This document shows positions 4,042 through 44,188 of a stretch of DNA of 64,000 nucleotides, piece by piece. The stretch lies in the NCBI GenBank assembly GCA_028823235.1, contig JAPKBW010000002.1:62001-126000 (forward strand), read 5' to 3'. Below the pieces are notes generated by a model. That model was given only the letters and a program-made list of their open reading frames with translations, did not search any database and had not been told where the DNA came from. Position 1 is the first letter of the stretch. Each line of letters begins with the position of its first letter. This DNA is from Longimicrobiales bacterium. Its GTDB lineage: Bacteria; Gemmatimonadota; Gemmatimonadetes; Longimicrobiales; Gaopeijiaceae. A program made the position numbers and the translations under genes.

Positions 4042-6305
4042 GGCTCGCTATGCCGTCGAGTGTCGGTGCGCTGGCGTTCGCACTCGCTCTTCTCTCGACG
4101 CCTGCCCACGCTCAGGAACGCTCGGGACCTGTCGGGAACGTCAACTATCCCGTCGACCCGCTCTCCATTCCGCGGCCGTCGATCACCGCGACGCGGGTTC
4201 GTGGACCGATGGTCATCGATGGACTCCTCGACGACTTGGCATGGGCCGACGCGGTCGTCTCGCGGGACCAATGGATTCAAACAGTGCCCGATCAGGGCAT
4301 GCCGGCGACCCAGCCTACGACTCTCCGTATCATCTATGACGAGAGCACGCTTTATATCGGCGCAGTTCTCTATGATGAGGATCCACACAATCTGACCGTC
4401 GCCGGTATAGAGCAGGACTTCGATACCACGAATTCTGACATCTTCGGGGTTGCCCTCGACACATACCTCGATCGGCAGAATGGATTCCTGTTCGCCGTGA
4501 ACCCGGAGGGGGCGATTTGGGACGCCCAGGCGTTCAATGACCAGCGTGACATGGTGCCGGCATGGGAAGGAATCGTCGAGGTGCGCACCTCGATCAACGA
4601 TTCGGCCTGGGTCGTGGAGATGGCGATCCCCTTTGCTACCCTGCGGTTCAATCCGGTGCAGGACGAACAACTATGGGGCATCAACTTCTCGCGCCGTATT
4701 CGCCGTCGGAACGAAGACGCGATGTGGGCGCCGCTGCCGCTGCAGTACCGGGTCTACAAGTTCTCGATGGCTGGTACTCTCGAGGGCCTCGAAGACCTCC
4801 CGGACGCGCGTAATCTGTGGGTAAAGCCCTATGCTCTTGGCGATGCGCTGACCGGCTCACGGTACGATGAAAGCGTTACGAATGGTGACGTGGGTCTCGA
4901 CGTGAAGTGGGGCCTGACGCCGCGCATGACGCTGGATCTCACCGTGAACACTGACTTCAGTCAGGTCGAGGTCGACCGAGAGCAGGTGAACTTGAGTCGG
5001 TTTTCGCTGTTCTTCCCGGAGAAGCGCGACTTCTTCCTCGAGAACGAAGGGACATTCGGCTTCCAGGACATTGCGATTCGGAACTACAGAACCGGGAGCA
5101 GTGGGCGGCAATTCAGACTCTTCCACTCCCGCCAGATCGGCCTGTCCCCGACCCGTGAGCCGCTGCCCATTGGCGGCGGTGCCCGGCTGACTGGTCGCAT
5201 CGGTGATCGTCTGGAAGTCGGCTTTCTCGACATGCAGACGCGTTCCTTCGAGGGGCTGTCTGATGGTTCGAACTACGTGGCTGAGAACTTCGCTGTCGGG
5301 CGTGTGAAGGCGCGGCTCGGAAGCGGCACTACGATTGGCGGGATCTTCGTGAATCGGGAGGAGACGGGTGGAATCGATCCCTCCGGCTTCAATCGGTCGT
5401 ACGGTGTCGACGCAAATGTGCAGCTGACTCAGAATCTGCTCGTGTCGAGCTATTGGGCGCGGACCGATGACAGCGATCCTGTCGGGGATGACACGAACAT
5501 CGCCATGTTTCAGGCGGCATACAGGAACGCCTTCTGGAATATCTCTGGCCTGTACAAACAGGTCGGCGATGGATTCAGTCCAGAGACGGGGTTCATCGAT
5601 CGAACAGCCGTGCGGAGGTACTTCGCGACCGTCGGAGTCCATGCGCAGGTCTCGACTCTGGGTCTGCGAGAGATCAATCCGTACGTCGACTTCGACACGT
5701 ACACCAACCTGTCAGGGGCCGTTGAGACACGGTCCATAGAGGCCGGGACCGTATTCTCGCTCAATCAAGGCGGCCAGGTGACCCTCACTGTGGCCGACCG
5801 ACATGAGCGCCTGTTCGAAGATACGCGGATCGCAGGCGTGACCGTGCAGGAAGGCACGTACGACTGGGTCGAGTCAGCGGTTCGCATCGCTACCCCTGGT
5901 AACTATGCGGTGTCCGTCAGTGGGTCCGTTCGCTGGGGTGATTTCTACGACGGCACACGAAAGACGATCTCCGGGGATCTCACGTTTCGACCGAACGCAC
6001 ACCTTTCGTTCGATGTGGGGGCGCAGCACAACGACCTGAATCTCGGCGGGTCTACTTTCACCGCCGACCTTTTTAGTGGACGCGTCCGGTATGCCCACAA
6101 CACGCGCACGTTCTTCATGGCGTTCGTTCAGTACAACGAAGCAGCTGAGGAACTCATCGCCAATGCGCGTTTCAACCTCGTTCACTCGCCGCTCTCGGAC
6201 GTGTTCCTGGTCTACACGGAACGACGCAGCCTGGCGGATGGGGTGACGGATACGGTTCTTGAACGCGGAATCACGCTCAAGATCACGAAGCTGCTGGCTT
6301 TCTGA
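4038..6305 (+). CDS. CBM9-like / DUF5916 outer-membrane protein
   Basis: This 755-residue protein has a signal peptide (residues 1 to about 25, ending AHAQE). A CBM9-like beta-sandwich follows at about 45-245 (VIDGLLDDLAWADA, LYIGAVLYDED, DVFGVALDTYLD-type strands). The C-terminal DUF5916 region runs from about 255 to the end, with the hallmark FSLFFPEKRDFFLENEG. The last 300 residues alternate polar and aromatic residues like beta-barrel strands, and the chain ends in an aromatic residue (LLAF), as outer-membrane barrels do. The family is abundant in Gemmatimonadota and Bacteroidota. Its ligand is unknown; carbohydrate binding is inferred only from the CBM9 fold. It is translationally coupled to the DUF3006 gene. 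A paralogue lies at 14896. Confidence 0.88.
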   Translation: MRLAMPSSVGALAFALALLSTPAHAQERSGPVGNVNYPVDPLSIPRPSITATRVRGPMVIDGLLDDLAWADAVVSRDQWIQTVPDQGMPATQPTTLRIIYDESTLYIGAVLYDEDPHNLTVAGIEQDFDTTNSDIFGVALDTYLDRQNGFLFAVNPEGAIWDAQAFNDQRDMVPAWEGIVEVRTSINDSAWVVEMAIPFATLRFNPVQDEQLWGINFSRRIRRRNEDAMWAPLPLQYRVYKFSMAGTLEGLEDLPDARNLWVKPYALGDALTGSRYDESVTNGDVGLDVKWGLTPRMTLDLTVNTDFSQVEVDREQVNLSRFSLFFPEKRDFFLENEGTFGFQDIAIRNYRTGSSGRQFRLFHSRQIGLSPTREPLPIGGGARLTGRIGDRLEVGFLDMQTRSFEGLSDGSNYVAENFAVGRVKARLGSGTTIGGIFVNREETGGIDPSGFNRSYGVDANVQLTQNLLVSSYWARTDDSDPVGDDTNIAMFQAAYRNAFWNISGLYKQVGDGFSPETGFIDRTAVRRYFATVGVHAQVSTLGLREINPYVDFDTYTNLSGAVETRSIEAGTVFSLNQGGQVTLTVADRHERLFEDTRIAGVTVQEGTYDWVESAVRIATPGNYAVSVSGSVRWGDFYDGTRKTISGDLTFRPNAHLSFDVGAQHNDLNLGGSTFTADLFSGRVRYAHNTRTFFMAFVQYNEAAEELIANARFNLVHSPLSDVFLVYTERRSLADGVTDTVLERGITLKITKLLAF

Positions 6306-6344
6306 GCGAGTAACTGCTCGCCCGGCCCAGACCGGTGATGCGAC

Positions 6345-7772
6345 CTAGACCAGCGCGGCGATCTCCGGCGAAAGACCGGGCCAGCTCGCGTACATCCCGT
6401 CGACCAGGGTGACGTCGTACCCATTTCGCTCGAGAAGGGCTGCCACGAATGACGCCCGGTTTCCGGATCGACAATGGACGAAGACTGGTTTGTCCGTCGG
6501 CACTTCGCTCAATCGCGGTTCGACTCGTGTGTGGGCGATGTGGATCGCGCCGGGGATATGACTTCCCGCGTACTCGGCGGACCCGCGCACATCCAGCACC
6601 GTGACCTGATCGCTGTCGATCTCCGTGGCCATGTTAGAGAAGTCGATCGTCGGTGTCTTGGTGGAGGCCACGGCCGAGCCGGTCAGGCTGCTCACTGGTG
6701 CAAATCCCGCGATCCGGTCGTAACCGATGCGCACGAGCGTGCGTACCGAAGCCTCGACGTCTGCGGCGTCAGCGATGAGGTAGATATTCGTCGACGGGTC
6801 GACATAGGAGCCCACCACCATCGCGAAGTTGATGCCGGCCGGGGCAAAGAGGGCTCCGAGGATGTGCGCCTTCATGAAGGCATCTCGGTCCCTGCGGGTG
6901 TCGACGATGACGGAGTCCTCAGTAGACCCCAGCGCCGCCAGCTCCTCGATCGTGTAGAGCTTCGGCGCCGGGAGAGATCCGAGGACTGGAATGCCGTTGC
7001 GGTTCATGTCCTTCATGCGCGCAAAGTAGGTGGGCGGCTCAGGCTGACCATCGAGGATAGAGTCAACAAAACCCTGCTCGTCCGCCTCGAAACCTAGCCC
7101 CGCGTTGAAACGGCGCTCGTACCCGACGGTGGACTGTGGAACGGCACCGAGCGCCTTTCCGCAGGCGCTACCGGCTCCGTGGCCGGGCCACACCTGCATA
7201 TGGTCCTCGAGCTCCAGGAACCGCTTCGTAGACGCGAAGAGGCGTCGGGCGGAGGGCTCGCGAGCGCCGGCTACCCCCGCAGCGGTTTCGAGAAGGTCGG
7301 GGCGCCCGAGGGCACCAACGAATACGAAGTCACCGGATGCGATCCCGATCGGCTCACTGGCGCCTCCACCAAGGTCGGTCACCACGAAGCTCATGTGCTC
7401 GGGCGTGTGTCCGGGCGTATGCAACAGGTCGAACCGGATGTTTCCGACCTTGAAGCTGTCGTTGTCCTTCAGGTAGTGGACGTCGTAGTTGCTGCTTTTC
7501 GCCCAATTGTACTTCCAGTCGGCGTCGCCCTCGTCGGACAGATACAGCTTGACCCCATGCTGCTCAGCGAGCTCGAGGGTACCGGTCAGGAAGTCGGCGT
7601 GGATGTGCGTCTCCGTGGCTGCGACGATGCGGAGCCCTTCTTCCCGCGCGATGTCGACATAGCGGTCGATATCGCGTTCGGGGTCGATCACGATCGCCTC
7701 TCCGGTGCGCTGACACCCGATGAGGTAGGCGTACTGTGCGAGATCGGGATCGAATACCTGGCGAAAGAACAT
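6345..7772 (-). CDS. MBL-fold hydrolase with two rhodanese domains (persulfide dioxygenase-like)
   Basis: This 475-residue cytosolic protein starts with an ETHE1/BLH-type metallo-beta-lactamase domain (residues 1 to about 250): ETHIHADFLTG metal motif, HTPGHTPEHMSF, and WPGHGAGSACG. Two rhodanese domains follow, at about 275-360 and 375-470. Only the second has a catalytic loop cysteine (VFVHCRSGNRA); the first appears to lack it and is probably structural. Such fusions oxidise glutathione or low-molecular-weight persulfides to sulfite and move sulfane sulfur. Sulfite made here could feed the sulfite-oxidase-type enzyme encoded at 20042, though the link is only inference. It is convergent with the DUF5916 gene, with a 39-base gap holding no clear terminator. 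Confidence 0.88.
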   Translation of the reverse strand: MFFRQVFDPDLAQYAYLIGCQRTGEAIVIDPERDIDRYVDIAREEGLRIVAATETHIHADFLTGTLELAEQHGVKLYLSDEGDADWKYNWAKSSNYDVHYLKDNDSFKVGNIRFDLLHTPGHTPEHMSFVVTDLGGGASEPIGIASGDFVFVGALGRPDLLETAAGVAGAREPSARRLFASTKRFLELEDHMQVWPGHGAGSACGKALGAVPQSTVGYERRFNAGLGFEADEQGFVDSILDGQPEPPTYFARMKDMNRNGIPVLGSLPAPKLYTIEELAALGSTEDSVIVDTRRDRDAFMKAHILGALFAPAGINFAMVVGSYVDPSTNIYLIADAADVEASVRTLVRIGYDRIAGFAPVSSLTGSAVASTKTPTIDFSNMATEIDSDQVTVLDVRGSAEYAGSHIPGAIHIAHTRVEPRLSEVPTDKPVFVHCRSGNRASFVAALLERNGYDVTLVDGMYASWPGLSPEIAALV

Positions 7773-39363: not shown

Positions 39364-39554
39364 GTGACTGCACCGTGAAGGTTCGACTTCTCTTTGTAGA
39401 TGACGGTGAATACCACCATGAGACCGTCGAAATTCCAGCCGCATCGGCTGATCGATACGATCGGCTGATCGACTGCTTCCTCGAGGACACCGATGTCATG
39501 AAGAAGCTCTTCGTGGACGTCGGTCGACTGGTCTCCGCTCGCATCGAAGACTAG
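39360..39554 (+). CDS. Small acidic hypothetical protein
   Basis: This 64-residue protein starts at GTG 39360, which overlaps the VKOR stop (GTGA), and begins MSDCTVKVRLLFVDDGEYHH. It is acidic, with a beta-hairpin and an amphipathic helix (RYDRLIDCFLEDTDV) and two cysteines. It carries no signal or known family. Tight coupling suggests it belongs to the disulfide module or is regulated with it. Its TAG overlaps the stop of the DUF402 gene (CTAG, 39551-39554). Confidence 0.7.
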   Translation: MSDCTVKVRLLFVDDGEYHHETVEIPAASADRYDRLIDCFLEDTDVMKKLFVDVGRLVSARIED

Positions 39555-40108
39555 GGAGCAGAAAGTTCCTTAAGGACGCGCTCGAGCGTCCAATCAGCCA
39601 CGATCGGCGGTGGCCATAGCCCCCGTCGGTGCCGTCCGATGATCTGCTCGGCCTCCCAACGCGCGCGATCCGCCGTCTCCTGGTCGATGTGCTTCTGGGC
39701 AACGCCTTCCAGAAATTCGTCTTCGTCGAGCAGTTCGCTCACATCGGTTGGCGACACCCAGACGTCCAGCCAGAGATCGGTCGTGTGCCAGATGGGCCCG
39801 TCGATCACGGGCGGGGTCAGAATGTTCGCGTACACTCCGGTAAATGATCCGTCGGCACGGTGGAATCGACCGATGTCGTGCCACATATCCGGGAAGGTGA
39901 ACCACACAGCGCGGGAGCCTGTTTCAAGCACGATCTCCCCGTTCACCTGCACCGGTTGTTCCAGTTCCAGGGGTTCCGACACGGTGACAATGACGTCGTC
40001 CTGCTCGTGCACGACTTGCTGCACGTAGACACGAAGACGGTCAGGCGGACGGCGATAGTGAATCGCGATCAGGGGGTGTTCAGGCACGTTCGGTGGCGAT
40101 TCGCTCAA
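39551..40108 (-). CDS. DUF402 domain protein
   Basis: This 185-residue cytosolic protein carries the DUF402 fold from about 20 to 160. Key parts are AVWFTFPDMWHDIGRFHRAD, FTGVYANILTPPVI and WHTTDLWLDVWV, with acidic residues clustered near the presumed metal site (TTDLWLDVWVSP). Characterised relatives are nucleotide or nucleoside-diphosphate hydrolases, so a phosphohydrolase role is the best guess. Its start overlaps the 3' end of the XdhC-type gene by 29 bases, making it the last gene of the five-gene operon that begins with the fatty-acid enzyme at 44093. Confidence 0.8.
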   Translation of the reverse strand: MSESPPNVPEHPLIAIHYRRPPDRLRVYVQQVVHEQDDVIVTVSEPLELEQPVQVNGEIVLETGSRAVWFTFPDMWHDIGRFHRADGSFTGVYANILTPPVIDGPIWHTTDLWLDVWVSPTDVSELLDEDEFLEGVAQKHIDQETADRARWEAEQIIGRHRRGLWPPPIVADWTLERVLKELSAP

Positions 40109-40418
40109 CGAACACGTCCATCACGCCGCCACATACCGCGGGGCTCCACGTCGTGAAATCTTCGGTGAGGTCGACGCGCACACGTTCAGACGCCCCAGAG
40201 TCGAGCACGCGATAGGCTGACTCGATGACCTCTGCCTCACCACATCCACCGCCGACCGTTCCCGTGAGGCCGTTCTCCGGATCGACCAGCATCCGGGCGC
40301 CTACCTTCCGCGGAGTAGATCCCCGTGTGCTCACGATGGTCGCAAGCACGCACGAGCGCCCTGCAGCGCTCGCTTCTGCCAGCGCCCCCGCGAGCGTGCG
40401 ATCATCTTCGTGCGTCAT
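40080..40418 (-). CDS. XdhC/CoxI-domain protein (stand-alone)
   Basis: This 112-residue protein is essentially one XdhC_CoxI domain: VLATIVSTRGSTPRKVGARM, then TGTVGGGCGEAEVIESA with the conserved cysteine, and a C-terminal VCGGVMDVFVE. In XdhC, this region handles molybdenum cofactor and its sulfur during maturation of molybdenum hydroxylases. Here it lacks the Rossmann half, which the next gene upstream supplies in its own polypeptide. It overlaps the upstream gene by 4 bases and DUF402 by 29. Confidence 0.85.
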   Translation of the reverse strand: MTHEDDRTLAGALAEASAAGRSCVLATIVSTRGSTPRKVGARMLVDPENGLTGTVGGGCGEAEVIESAYRVLDSGASERVRVDLTEDFTTWSPAVCGGVMDVFVERIATERA

Positions 40419-41269
40419 GAATCGTCCTGTTCATCGTCATCCGTGCTCGTCGGCTCAGGCGCGTCAAAAAATCGCTCAGCGACTCGCTCGACTCCCTTTA
40501 GCGGGAGCCCCGTACCGCCACGATCGAGCATGATCAGCTCTGCCGCCACCGCGACTGCGATTTCTTCGGGTGTCTCTGCCCCGATGTCGAGACCGACCGG
40601 AGCGTGAATCCGATCGATCAGGTGGCGCTCGACGCCCTCGTCGATGAGTTGCACATAGGTAGCCCGCACTCGACGTCGACTGCCGATCATCCCAATGTAT
40701 GCCGGCGCCGGATCGGTCCGGAGCGCCCGAATCAGGCACTCGTAGTCGTATTTGTGGCCTCTGGTCACGAGCAATAGGTGAGAGCGCTCATGGAGGACGA
40801 CGTCGGCGAACGGGTCTGAGAAGTCGGCACGTACCAGACGATCCGCGTCAGGGAACCGCTCCCGCGTTGCGAAGTCCGGCCGGTCGTCGAGCACGATCAC
40901 ACGGTACCCGAGCAGTGCGCCGATGTGGGCCATCGGTTGAGCGATGTGGCCGGCCCCGACAACCAGTAGCTCCTTGATTGGTCGACGCACCTCCAGATAC
41001 AGCTCGACGATGCCGAGCCCTTCGACCTCGACGGTGCGCAAGCCATCCTGGACACGCAGATCCGACCGAGCAGCGGACATGAGTGCGCTGGCATCTTCGT
41101 TCAGCGGTGGTGTGCCAAGGTCGCCAACCTCGATGTCGCCTTGCAGTCGTCGTCGCCCGAGTAGGTGAGCATGATCACACGCGACGACGGTAACGCCGAC
41201 AGCGGTGCGCCCTTGCTCCGCAGCGGAGAGAAGAGACGCCGAGACTTCAGCTGCGGAGATCGCGCTCAT
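40415..41269 (-). CDS. XdhC-family protein with Rossmann domain
   Basis: This 284-residue protein has a divergent XdhC-like first 90 residues without the conserved cysteine, and a C-terminal Rossmann domain from about 95 (LLVVGAGHIAQPMAHIGALL, VIVLDDRPDFA, VTRGHKYDYECLIRAL, YIGMIGSRRR). XdhC binds molybdenum cofactor and hands it to xanthine-dehydrogenase-type enzymes. The split from the 112-residue partner suggests the two proteins act as a complex. It overlaps MocA and the smaller XdhC gene by 4 bases each. No Mo hydroxylase gene is visible in the window. Confidence 0.87.
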   Translation of the reverse strand: MSAISAAEVSASLLSAAEQGRTAVGVTVVACDHAHLLGRRRLQGDIEVGDLGTPPLNEDASALMSAARSDLRVQDGLRTVEVEGLGIVELYLEVRRPIKELLVVGAGHIAQPMAHIGALLGYRVIVLDDRPDFATRERFPDADRLVRADFSDPFADVVLHERSHLLLVTRGHKYDYECLIRALRTDPAPAYIGMIGSRRRVRATYVQLIDEGVERHLIDRIHAPVGLDIGAETPEEIAVAVAAELIMLDRGGTGLPLKGVERVAERFFDAPEPTSTDDDEQDDS

Positions 41270-41877
41270 GGGGCCTGATCATTTCCGTTGGATCGGAGCA
41301 GTTCGTAGTCGGCGGGTGTGTCGACATCCGTGATCACAGTGGCATCAGGCCAGTCCACGATTCGCGCCCGGTCGAGGTATCGATGAACGACGATCCGTGC
41401 TCCGCCCTCTAGTGCCGGGTCGACGAGTTCGTCGAAGAGCCTGCGTCGGAAGAGCGCAGGATGCCCCCGCTTCGCGCCATGGACGGGCAGTGTAAGAGGC
41501 GCGTCGGACTCAACGGCCGCATCGATCAGTCGTGAGACCGTCTGGGCCTCGACGAGCGGATAGTCGAGTGGCAGGTAAGCAATCCCATCGGTTTCCGGCG
41601 AAGCGGCTCTAATGGCGAGCCTGAGGGAAGTGATCGGGCCCTCGCCTGGGTCCGGATTTCTTACGACCGTGGCTCCGGTTCGTTCCGCCTCCCTCATGAC
41701 GAGGACGTCAGTCTCGTCGACGATCACATAAACGGGGTCACAGCCGCCGTCGCGAAGCGCCCGGACCGCGCGCTCCAGAAAGCTGGAGTCGCCGAGCATG
41801 AGTGCGGCCTTCGGAGATCCCATCCGGCGAGAGACCCCGGAAGCCGGCACTACACCCGCGAACCGAAGTGGATTCAC
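41266..41877 (-). CDS. MocA-like molybdenum cofactor nucleotidyltransferase
   Basis: This 203-residue protein has the MobA/MocA-type nucleotidyltransferase core. It opens VVPASGVSRRMGSPKAAL (P-loop-like, about 9-27) and has the metal-binding YLPLDYPLV near 100. MocA makes the cytosine dinucleotide form of the molybdenum cofactor from CTP and Mo-molybdopterin for Mo hydroxylases. CTP versus GTP selectivity cannot be judged. It is linked by 4-base overlaps to the XdhC genes and the fatty-acid enzyme. Confidence 0.82.
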   Translation of the reverse strand: MNPLRFAGVVPASGVSRRMGSPKAALMLGDSSFLERAVRALRDGGCDPVYVIVDETDVLVMREAERTGATVVRNPDPGEGPITSLRLAIRAASPETDGIAYLPLDYPLVEAQTVSRLIDAAVESDAPLTLPVHGAKRGHPALFRRRLFDELVDPALEGGARIVVHRYLDRARIVDWPDATVITDVDTPADYELLRSNGNDQAP

Positions 41878-44093
41878 GTGGCGCTCGCACCCGGGAACGC
41901 CTCGTAGAATGCTCTATCTTCGGCAGCGAGTCGGACCAGGACTGGGGCAGGCTCGAAGCGGGCTCCGAACTCCCGATGAAGTTCCTGCAGCTGATCGAGC
42001 ACACCCCGCGGATGCAGCGTGTCGGCGAAACGCAGGAGGCCACCGCGGAAGGGAGGGAACCCTGTTCCCATGATCATGGCCAGATCGATGTCATAGGCGG
42101 CAGTAACAATTCCGTCCTCCAGAATTCGTGCGGCTTCGTTTACCATCGACAAGACGAGCCGTCGACGGATGGCGGCATCCGCACCGCTCGTCTGTTCGGG
42201 CTCTCGGGCCGTCATTCCGAGTTCTGCGAAGACGCCATTGTCGACGCCCTTCGCGACACCATTCTCATAGGTGTAGAGGCCGGAGCCACCCTTTTTCCCC
42301 AGACGTCCGGTGTTGCCGAGAGCGATCAACATCGGCGCGGGCTCAAAACGTTCGCCGAGGCCGGCGTAAAGAGATGCTCCGGCGTGACTCGATACGTCGA
42401 TGCCAACCTCGTCGATGAGACGGAGCGGGCCCATCGGCATGCCGAACTCCAGGGCCACCCGGTCGATCGTCTCGATCGAACCTGTGTCAGCGAGCAGGTA
42501 TCCGGCTTCGTTCAGGTACGGCCCCAGAATTCGATTCACCAGGAAGCCGGGTCCATCGCCAACCACGACAGGGACCTTGCCGAGGCGAACCGCGAGTCGA
42601 TACACGAGGCGTACGGCCTCGTCCGAGGTCTTCGGACCGCGAATGACCTCGACGAGCGGCATCCTGTGCACCGGATTGAAGAAATGCATGCCACAGAAGC
42701 GCTCTGGGTGATCCAGCGCGTCGGCCATCTCGGTCACGGAAAGAGATGACGTATTGGTGGCGAGGACACACCGCTCCGAAATGTGCACCTCCATTTCTTG
42801 AAGCACCGCCTTCTTCACGGCCATCTTTTCTACGATGGCTTCGATCACCAAGCCTGCATTCGAGAGACCATGGTATTCGAGGCCCCCGGAAATGAGTTCT
42901 AGTTGTTGCGCTGCCTCTCGACGACTCAGTCGCCGCCGCTTCACGGACTTGTCGAAGAGCGACTTCGCGTGCCGAAGGCCACCTGTCACCGCGGCGTGAT
43001 CGATGTCCTTCATGAACACACGGATGCCTCTCGATGCACCAAGCTGGGCGATGCCCCCACCCATGACTCCGGCCCCGAGGACACCGATCTCGTCGACCAA
43101 CGGGGGCTCCAGACCAGGAGTCGCGCTCGTCGTTGGTGTCGAGGACGTGTCATCCCTGTGAGTTACACCGTCGCCCTTTCGGGCGGCTTCACGCATGTGA
43201 AACACGTGAACGAGGTTCTTACACACTGGAGCCACGAGGAGCTCAGCCGCGGCCTTTGCTTCGGCCAGGAGGCTGGCCTCAATCGGGCCACCCATGTGGT
43301 CTCGGAGGATATCGAGAATCCGCAGTGGGGCAGGGTAGTGGCCTCCGGTCGTCGCGAGGACCTTTTTGTGTGCCGTACGGAGCACGATTCGCCGCCCGAG
43401 AGCGGTTTCGTCGAGGAATCGGGTCAGAAGCGGTCGTTTGCCCGTCGCGCCACGATCCGGGTTCTGGACCACGCCGAGGGCGAAGGCCCTCGCTTTGTCC
43501 TCGAACAGTCCTGCCGGGAACACTTCTGATGCCAGGCCAATACGCTTCGCCTTGGAGGCGTCGATGCGCTTGCCAGTCAGCAACAAGTCGAGAGCGGCCT
43601 GGAGCCCGATCAGGCGGGGCAGGCGCGTTGTACCGCCCCACGCCGGGAGGATGCCCAGCTGGACCTCAGGCAGACCCATCTTCGTCTTCTTGGCATCCGA
43701 CAGGACCCGGTACCCGCACGCGAGCGACAGTTCGACTCCTCCACCGACGCACACGCCATGAATCGCCGCAATTGTCGGAACCGTGAGGGCTGCGAGGTCA
43801 TCGTAGATCGACTGCCCGATCCGAATGGCTCGCTCGGCCGCTTCGGGGTCTTCGACGCTACCGATGATCTCGATGTCGGCTCCGGCGATGCACGAGTCCG
43901 GTTTTCCGCTTCGCACGATCAACGCCACGAGTCGCCCTTCACGGGCCGCGCCACGCGCCTCGTCGATCAACTCTCCGAGCCGAAGCATCACTGACTCGGT
44001 CAGGACGTTCATCAAACGGTCGGGGTCGTCGAACGTGATCCAACCGACCTGGGAGGAGTCGATCTCGAAGGTTGGGGTCGCGCTGTGTGTCAT
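41874..44093 (-). CDS. Bifunctional enoyl-CoA hydratase / 3-hydroxyacyl-CoA dehydrogenase
   Basis: This 739-residue cytosolic enzyme is FadB/FadJ-like and catalyses two steps of beta-oxidation. The N-terminal crotonase domain (1 to about 200) contains CIAGADIEIIGS and HGVCVGGGVELSLACGYRV. A Rossmann dehydrogenase domain starts near 335 (IGVLGAGVMGGGIAQLGA) and is followed by CGMHFFNPVHRMPLVEV. A helical end completes it. A thiolase partner is not nearby. It is first in the operon with MocA, XdhC, XdhC and DUF402, joined by 4-base overlaps. Confidence 0.93.
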   Translation of the reverse strand: MTHSATPTFEIDSSQVGWITFDDPDRLMNVLTESVMLRLGELIDEARGAAREGRLVALIVRSGKPDSCIAGADIEIIGSVEDPEAAERAIRIGQSIYDDLAALTVPTIAAIHGVCVGGGVELSLACGYRVLSDAKKTKMGLPEVQLGILPAWGGTTRLPRLIGLQAALDLLLTGKRIDASKAKRIGLASEVFPAGLFEDKARAFALGVVQNPDRGATGKRPLLTRFLDETALGRRIVLRTAHKKVLATTGGHYPAPLRILDILRDHMGGPIEASLLAEAKAAAELLVAPVCKNLVHVFHMREAARKGDGVTHRDDTSSTPTTSATPGLEPPLVDEIGVLGAGVMGGGIAQLGASRGIRVFMKDIDHAAVTGGLRHAKSLFDKSVKRRRLSRREAAQQLELISGGLEYHGLSNAGLVIEAIVEKMAVKKAVLQEMEVHISERCVLATNTSSLSVTEMADALDHPERFCGMHFFNPVHRMPLVEVIRGPKTSDEAVRLVYRLAVRLGKVPVVVGDGPGFLVNRILGPYLNEAGYLLADTGSIETIDRVALEFGMPMGPLRLIDEVGIDVSSHAGASLYAGLGERFEPAPMLIALGNTGRLGKKGGSGLYTYENGVAKGVDNGVFAELGMTAREPEQTSGADAAIRRRLVLSMVNEAARILEDGIVTAAYDIDLAMIMGTGFPPFRGGLLRFADTLHPRGVLDQLQELHREFGARFEPAPVLVRLAAEDRAFYEAFPGASAT

Positions 44094-44153
44094 CGCGGCT
44101 CGTGTGCGAGGGGCTGCATCGTCACCACAATAGGCAACCGAGGCGCAAAAGGA

Positions 44154-44188
44154 AGCCGCCCGGGCGCACTGAAGGCGCCCGGGCGGCT
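44154..44188 (-). terminator. Rho-independent terminator of the lipoprotein gene
   Basis: A perfect 14-bp inverted repeat, AGCCGCCCGGGCGC (44154-44167) and GCGCCCGGGCGGCT (44175-44188), has a 7-base loop. On the minus strand it is followed by TTCCTTTT, a T-rich tail. It lies between the lipoprotein gene (ends 44212) and the fatty-acid gene start (44093), and would stop minus-strand transcripts, separating the two units. Confidence 0.8.

What the first reader, a model, noticed from the sequence alone, without database searches (positions are those of the whole stretch)
39551..44093. Mo-hydroxylase maturation genes without a hydroxylase, coupled to a fatty-acid enzyme
Seen: FadB-like, MocA, XdhC, stand-alone XdhC domain and DUF402, joined by 4-base overlaps (29 bases for DUF402). 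Known: MocA and XdhC serve molybdenum-hydroxylases. The target enzyme must be elsewhere, or these proteins serve another role in acyl-CoA metabolism.
Basis: partly seen in the sequence, partly recalled or inferred. Interest (0 to 1): 0.55.

Follow-up and report, generated by a model that had tools for sequence, protein, structure and literature searches.

The report
Molybdenum-enzyme maturation genes inside another operon
Three genes that load the molybdenum cofactor into enzymes sit between a fatty-acid enzyme gene and a phosphatase-like gene because a small gene block was inserted there long ago; the enzymes they serve are encoded elsewhere in the same genome, so the arrangement is mostly ordinary.

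Summary
The five genes are there, on the - strand, in one tight run: FadB-like, MocA, the Rossmann half of XdhC, the CoxI half of XdhC, and DUF402. The "missing" hydroxylases are elsewhere: the genome (97% complete, Gemmatimonadota) has four Mo-hydroxylase large-subunit genes, none near maturation genes, while this run holds its only XdhC_C and XdhC_CoxI domains above cut-off. Comparison explains the odd neighbourhood. In sister family f3 and in two families outside the order, the same chromosomal block reads ...MetG-M23-lipoprotein-FadB-DUF402 with nothing between FadB and DUF402. The MocA-XdhC-CoxI cassette most likely entered that gap once, at the base of the window's family. It was later lost several times, and FadB was lost about four times while the cassette stayed. 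FadB, DUF402 and the cassette are therefore separable; DUF402 persists in genomes with no XdhC or hydroxylase. In sister families the cassette often lies beside hydroxylase genes whose closest solved relative is 4-hydroxybenzoyl-CoA reductase. A role of MocA/XdhC in acyl-CoA metabolism is not supported. The 29-base DUF402 overlap is probably 8 bases (GTG start at 40087). Free-standing xdhC/mocA operons are already known; new are the insertion history and the FadB-DUF402 pair.

The parts
41874..44093 (-). FadB/FadJ-like two-domain enzyme (enoyl-CoA hydratase + 3-hydroxyacyl-CoA dehydrogenase), 739 aa; first gene of the run; ancestral neighbour of DUF402
   Evidence: Pfam ECH_1, 3HCDH_N, 3HCDH; NCBIfam FadJ 674 bits, cut-off 869; only full-length match of this kind in the genome
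41266..41877 (-). MocA-like molybdenum cofactor cytidylyltransferase, 203 aa; cassette gene 1
   Evidence: Pfam NTP_transf_3 124 bits; TIGR03310 118 bits, cut-off 186
40415..41269 (-). XdhC C-terminal (Rossmann) part, 284 aa; cassette gene 2
   Evidence: Pfam XdhC_C 148 bits; aligns to residues 124-367 of 2we7; only match above cut-off in the genome
40080..40418 (-). XdhC_CoxI domain protein = N-terminal part of XdhC as a separate gene, 112 aa; cassette gene 3
   Evidence: Pfam XdhC_CoxI 85.6 bits; NF045664 positions 5-103; only match in the genome
39551..40087 (-). DUF402 protein, 178 aa from GTG 40087 (8-base overlap); predicted two-metal nucleotide hydrolase; ancestral neighbour of FadB
   Evidence: Pfam DUF402; start from alignment A1; model pLDDT 96.3; Foldseek hits RNase W/FAU-1, Sa1684, SC4828, FomD
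44147..44187 (-). GC-rich hairpin (13-bp stem) followed by TTCCTTTT: likely terminator of the upstream lipoprotein gene, so FadB probably starts a new transcript
   Evidence: read by eye from the sequence; not scored by a tool

Best explanation
The locus is a composite. FadB and DUF402 are an old adjacent pair inside a conserved housekeeping block of Gemmatimonadota (AccA-PSP1-MetG-M23-lipoprotein-FadB-DUF402 facing VKOR/DsbA-HAD-IlvA-GyrA). At the base of the window's family a three-gene cassette, MocA - XdhC Rossmann half - XdhC CoxI half, became lodged between them and is now read as one overlapping run. Shown here: gene content, order, tree position, and absence from outgroups. The cassette works as ordinary Mo-hydroxylase maturation: MocA adds CMP to the cofactor, and the two XdhC halves bind it, help its sulfuration and insert it (inferred from the families). 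Its clients are the four hydroxylases encoded elsewhere in the genome, for which this is the only XdhC set found (shown by search; the service itself is inferred). FadB and DUF402 are passengers, not Mo-maturation parts. Being translated in one run with FadB may tie cassette expression to that of FadB (inferred).
For: Four PF02738 hydroxylases elsewhere, none with XdhC or MocA near it (ORFs read). Only one XdhC_C over cut-off and one XdhC_CoxI in the genome, both here. A MoaA-family match shows Moco synthesis. Across the order's 154 genomes, XdhC and hydroxylase co-occur: both 134, neither 7, hydroxylase only 8, XdhC only 5; Fisher p 1.1e-5, not corrected for kinship. Outgroups have FadB directly before DUF402 with no cassette: f3 10 of 10 loci with room on the contig, f9 7 of 7, f7 5 of 5. 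The window's family is one clade (SH-aLRT 100) and its earliest branch (g11/g23) carries the cassette; cassette-free members are nested among cassette bearers, and holding all cassette or relic loci as one clade is rejected (p-AU 4e-9). On the 87-locus tree, eight cassette losses and four FadB losses in the family. DUF402 occurs in 138 of 154 genomes, including G070, G075, G076, G122 and G152, which have neither XdhC nor a hydroxylase. XdhC of the cassette and of the f2/f3 loci groups apart from 15 paralogous XdhC (support 0.73).
Against: Two genomes keep the cassette without any detected hydroxylase: G071 (88% complete) and G080 (93%). Two cassette-free genomes have hydroxylases but no detected XdhC: G045 (89%) and G060 (81%). 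The tally of one gain plus many losses assumes that losses are easier than repeated insertion at one exact junction; parsimony alone gives the same number of changes. The insertion step itself was not caught: no mobile-element remnant was looked for. All genomes are draft or metagenome-assembled or unnamed.
Confidence: 0.87

Rival explanations
1. The linkage is functional: one client is a molybdenum enzyme acting on a CoA thioester (4-hydroxybenzoyl-CoA-reductase-like), so selection placed its maturation genes under the control of the beta-oxidation gene fadB.
For: The hydroxylase genes near the cassette in f2/f3 are orthologues of the C6 enzyme of this genome, whose large and medium subunits are closest to 4-hydroxybenzoyl-CoA reductase 1rm6 (611 and 209 bits) and whose medium subunit keeps the four-cysteine loop. 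FadB and cassette have stayed together in most of the family (39 of 47 fetched loci).
Against: The two come apart both ways: cassette kept with FadB gone in 7 loci plus one cut contig, FadB kept with cassette gone in 20 family genomes. The cassette is kept without the HCR-like enzyme in 8 B and 5 C genomes, and the HCR-like enzyme without the cassette in 6 A genomes. FadB pairs with DUF402 in outgroups without the cassette. No acyl-CoA gene was noticed beside the HCR-like genes on C6 (names judged by eye from the ORFs).
Confidence: 0.1
2. DUF402 belongs to cofactor maturation, for example hydrolysing cytidine nucleotides around MocA (its relative FomD hydrolyses a cytidylyl compound).
For: Overlapping genes in the family; fold match to FomD with CDP, 5zdn.
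Against: DUF402 sits next to FadB without the cassette in f3, f9 and f7, and persists in genomes without XdhC or hydroxylases. In f2 and f3 it lies away from XdhC.
Confidence: 0.03
3. MocA and XdhC have been recruited to a non-molybdenum role here.
For: Two genomes keep the cassette with no detected hydroxylase (G071, G080).
Against: Co-occurrence with hydroxylases, four hydroxylases in the window's own genome, intact signature segments of MocA.
Confidence: 0.02

Closest known systems
Free-standing xdhC-mocA operons, e.g. in Oligotropha carboxidovorans, and XdhC homologues outside molybdoenzyme operons (review PMC2997495, passages read)
   Same: XdhC homologue encoded with a MocA homologue and without a hydroxylase; the review suggests such XdhC may serve several molybdoenzymes
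   Different: Here XdhC is split into two genes in reversed order and the set lies inside a FadB-DUF402 pair
Bacillus subtilis pucA-pucB (PMC2997495, passages)
   Same: XdhC homologue next to MocA homologue
   Different: There the structural genes pucCDE are in the same operon; here none is near
XdhC family aldehyde oxidoreductase maturation factor NF045664 and DVU_1551-family NTP transferase NF045665 (models only)
   Same: Best NCBIfam matches of the XdhC halves and of MocA
   Different: All below the curated cut-offs; the XdhC model is one 346-aa protein
4-hydroxybenzoyl-CoA reductase (PDB 1rm6/1sb3)
   Same: Closest solved relative of the probable original client on C6, medium and large subunits
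   Different: Below the TIGR03193/4/5 cut-offs; substrate unknown
DUF402 nucleotidases and RNases: NtdP/Sa1684, SC4828, FomD, RNase W (PMC11602121, passages read)
   Same: Fold, and alignment of the conserved Asn and two Asp
   Different: No known member is described beside FadB in the papers searched (no paper holds both words)

Membership tests
XdhC maturation factor | XdhC_CoxI domain plus XdhC Rossmann domain | tested here: met
   Both domains above gathering score, on two adjacent genes; the 284-aa part aligns to 2we7 124-367
XdhC maturation factor | both domains in one polypeptide | tested here: not met
   Two ORFs, Rossmann half first; separate CoxI and XdhC hits also in relatives
XdhC maturation factor | binds Moco, takes part in sulfuration, inserts it into the apo-enzyme | not testable with these tools
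   needs biochemistry; described for R. capsulatus XdhC in PMC2997495 (passages)
MocA cytidylyltransferase | NTP_transf_3 fold with intact N-terminal nucleotide segment (the motif as a signature is recalled) | tested here: met
   sequence PASGVSRRMGSPK
MocA cytidylyltransferase | equivalog cut-off of TIGR03310 (186 bits) | tested here: not met
   118 bits, so CTP specificity is inferred, not assigned
FadB/FadJ fatty acid oxidation alpha subunit | ECH and 3HCDH domains in one chain | tested here: met
FadB/FadJ fatty acid oxidation alpha subunit | FadJ/FadB equivalog cut-offs | tested here: not met
   FadJ 674 of 869 bits, FadB 570 of 870
DUF402 nucleotide hydrolase | fold and conserved Asn + two Asp of the active site | tested here: met
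   N88, D104, D108 invariant in 27 sequences, aligned by HMMER with the 8wo8 chain; universally conserved N404, D420, D424 in RNase W (PMC11602121 passage); fold E 1e-9 to 1e-10
DUF402 nucleotide hydrolase | substrate (NDP/NTP, cytidylyl-phosphonate or RNA) | not testable with these tools
   sequence does not decide
4-hydroxybenzoyl-CoA reductase (the C6 enzyme, not in the window) | extra four-cysteine loop in the FAD subunit; that it binds [4Fe-4S] is recalled | tested here: met
   cysteines of the loop aligned with 1rm6_B
4-hydroxybenzoyl-CoA reductase (the C6 enzyme, not in the window) | TIGR03193/03194/03195 cut-offs | tested here: not met
   169 of 258, 886 of 995, 303 of 405 bits

The most novel reading that the evidence does not exclude
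FadB and this DUF402 protein form a conserved two-gene beta-oxidation unit across much of the class, in which DUF402 is a two-metal hydrolase acting on a CoA-derived nucleotide or acyl-adenylate. By slipping between them, the Mo cassette put maturation of a CoA-ester-reducing molybdenum enzyme under the same control as beta-oxidation in one family.
Probability: 0.07. Interest if true: 0.55.

Novelty: new variant of a known kind. Interest (0 to 1): 0.3.

Why it matters
It turns an apparent functional puzzle into a documented case in which tight gene overlap does not mean shared function: a three-gene cassette lodged between two older partners and was later lost several times. It warns against reading function from 4-base overlaps alone. 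It also points to a better lead: a FadB-DUF402 pair kept across several families with no known rationale, and a widespread 4-hydroxybenzoyl-CoA-reductase-like enzyme in Gemmatimonadota.

Tried and rejected
Rejected: that the hydroxylase is missing (four found); that DUF402 belongs to Mo maturation (gene order); that the cassette serves only the HCR-like enzyme (13 of 48 cassette genomes of the family lack it, 6 cassette-free ones have it; the 48 are the window plus 47 fetched loci).

Led nowhere or partly: my first ORF-based annotation missed CoxI or MocA in some loci (for example L078, L079, L153, L275) because one ORF was allowed one best hit; tblastn found them, so absences are taken where they matter. 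The XdhC tree is too weak to show congruence within the family. The fetched family loci are not a random sample: cassette loci were taken from the best XdhC hits and spread over genera, cassette-free loci from DUF402 hits without a linked XdhC; many g2 and g3 genomes were not fetched. Gene states A/B/C/R and the HCR-like list (59% identity or more over any length) were assigned by my script or by hand from the listings; the place list was truncated, but every genome's best E-value is in its table. Nine rows with too few letters were dropped from the 96 before the 87-locus tree. Literature: searches; PMC2997495 and PMC11602121 were read as passages only, all others seen only as listings.
Full report
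WHAT IS THERE. The five ORFs lie at 44093-39551 on the - strand, and every one has its Pfam domain above the gathering score. Three junctions overlap by exactly four bases. The fourth was given as 29 bases, counted from a TTG at 40108. The sequence there is GTGCCTGA, and the alignment of 27 relatives starts at that GTG (40087), so an 8-base overlap is more likely. A GC-rich hairpin with a T-run lies between the upstream lipoprotein gene and FadB (by eye), so FadB probably opens the transcript.

XdhC IS SPLIT. The 284-aa protein matches 2we7 from residue 124 on and full-length model NF045664 from position 171 on; the 112-aa protein matches positions 5-103 of the same model. Together they make one XdhC, cut at the domain border and with the halves in reversed gene order. 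Separate XdhC and CoxI hits are also seen in the related loci of three families.

THE HYDROXYLASES ARE ELSEWHERE. The genome (3.14 Mb, 90 contigs, 97.2% complete) holds four PF02738 large subunits: C6:160695, C18:29423, C17:33087 and C2:5889. Pfam confirms MoCoBD domains in all four. In 17-20 kb around each I found small subunits, and FAD subunits at three of them, but no MocA or XdhC (regions, ORFs read; genome-wide XdhC search). The only XdhC_C match above cut-off and the only XdhC_CoxI match in the genome are those of the window; six other XdhC_C matches are far below cut-off. A second MobA/MocA-like gene is at C14:9654. A MoaA-family match shows Moco synthesis.

CO-OCCURRENCE. In the order's 154 genomes, 139 have an XdhC match and 142 a PF02738 match: both 134, neither 7, hydroxylase only 8, XdhC only 5, Fisher p 1.1e-5 (species are related, so this p is too small). 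Of 49 cassette-bearing genomes of the family (the window, 47 fetched loci, and G080 in L275), 47 have a hydroxylase; G071 and G080 do not. Of 20 fetched family genomes without the cassette, 15 have a hydroxylase, and 13 of these 15 have another XdhC match (exceptions G045, 89% complete, and G060, 81%). Such XdhC sets were fetched for nine of the cassette-free genomes and seven others (the G080 region among them proved to be the cassette locus itself), and several lie beside their own hydroxylase genes.

GENE ORDER IN RELATIVES. I fetched 60 XdhC loci, then 20 regions of which 18 hold XdhC loci of the sister families, then 46 DUF402 loci. In the window's family f1 the block AccA-PSP1-MetG-M23-lipoprotein-[FadB]-[cassette]-DUF402, facing DsbA/VKOR-HAD-IlvA-GyrA, recurs over some 40 genera. 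My script scored 95 fetched loci as FadB-cassette 39, FadB-DUF402 without cassette 25 (15 in f1, 10 in f3), cassette without FadB 8 (one on a cut contig), FadB-MocA only 5, neither 18. No hydroxylase subunit occurs in any of the 47 f1 cassette loci, whereas 12 of 25 examined f2/f3 genomes have hydroxylase subunits in the same fetched stretch as XdhC. Among 80 DUF402 loci from the named genome collection (the best 80 of 114), 40 are FadB-cassette-DUF402, 21 cassette-DUF402 without FadB (3 on cut contigs), 12 FadB-DUF402 direct, 1 with a MocA only, 6 neither; these overlap with the genomes above.

WHICH ORDER IS OLD. Outside the order, FadB directly precedes DUF402 without the cassette in 7 of 7 loci of family f9 and 5 of 5 of f7; in 8 loci of f4 DUF402 stands without this FadB (the 20 loci were chosen from the class matches listed). 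In f3 the same holds for 10 of 10 loci with room on the contig, in f2 for 0 of 16. FadB stop and DUF402 start lie within about 60 bases in 23 of 25 such loci (the others 63 and 81). A tree of ten flanking proteins, 46 rows, 3587 columns, puts f1 in one clade (SH-aLRT 100) whose first branch carries the cassette; cassette-free f1 loci are nested in several places. Holding all cassette or relic loci together is rejected (p-AU 4e-9). On the 87-locus tree, one gain and eight losses in f1 fit the minimum of nine changes; FadB was lost about four times. Parsimony cannot by itself exclude repeated insertion at one exact junction; I judge loss the easier event.

RELICS. In five genomes (G067, G068, G070, G075, G076) a MocA-like ORF alone remains between FadB and DUF402. 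It has lost the RMGxxK segment that intact relatives keep, but retains the C-terminal YRRHFP..RKRFQKW stretch shared with intact MocA of its clade. Three of the five have no hydroxylase and no XdhC at all.

THE LIKELY ORIGINAL CLIENT. The hydroxylase near the cassette in f2/f3 is the orthologue of the C6 enzyme (62-75% identity). The C6 large and medium subunits have 4-hydroxybenzoyl-CoA reductase 1rm6 as closest solved relative, below the NCBIfam cut-offs. The medium subunit keeps the cysteines of the extra loop (that the loop binds [4Fe-4S] is recalled). By my count 102 of 154 genomes have a medium subunit of this type (59% identity or more; counted).

DUF402. Model pLDDT 96.3; nearest folds are RNase W/FAU-1, Sa1684, SC4828 and FomD. 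The Asn and two Asp described as universally conserved (PMC11602121 passage) correspond to N88, D104 and D108, invariant in our alignment. It is probably an active phosphoryl hydrolase of unknown substrate; the same paper leaves open what isolated bacterial DUF402 proteins do. It occurs in 138 of 154 genomes of the order and 158 of 395 genomes drawn from the phylum at E 1e-20.

KNOWN OR NEW. [quoted passage not shown] I found no paper on this arrangement in Gemmatimonadota nor on DUF402 with FadB; the library is partial.

VERDICT. An ordinary Mo-hydroxylase maturation set, the only one found in its genome, lodged between two unrelated older neighbours.

Noticed in passing
L005:5498-10457 (G000 contig C6, outside the window): 4-hydroxybenzoyl-CoA-reductase-like three-subunit Mo enzyme with the four-cysteine loop, with an AmiA-like gene between large and FAD subunits; relatives of its FAD subunit at 59% identity or more in 102 of 154 genomes of the order.
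   Followed up: partly
window 39551-40087 and 41874-44093; L231, L232, L234-L241, L277-L283, L292-L296: FadB and DUF402 are adjacent across three other families of the class without the Mo cassette: a conserved pair with no known rationale.
   Followed up: partly
L195, L196, L252, L253, L255 between FadB and DUF402: MocA relics that lost the nucleotide-binding segment but keep a conserved C-terminal YRRHFP..RKRFQKW stretch; possibly a pseudoenzyme kept for another use.
   Followed up: partly
L150, L155, L159, L165: Records titled Gammaproteobacteria carry the Gemmatimonadota block and cassette; probably misnamed metagenome bins.
   Followed up: no
L075 (G090), FadB at 5240-7388 in the flipped coordinates: FadB matches fall in two separate open frames: a frameshift or assembly error.
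   Followed up: no
L083 (G058): A GyrA-IlvA-HAD segment lies between XdhC and CoxI on the same strand as XdhC, separating the two XdhC halves by about 4.3 kb; no DUF402 match in this genome.
   Followed up: no
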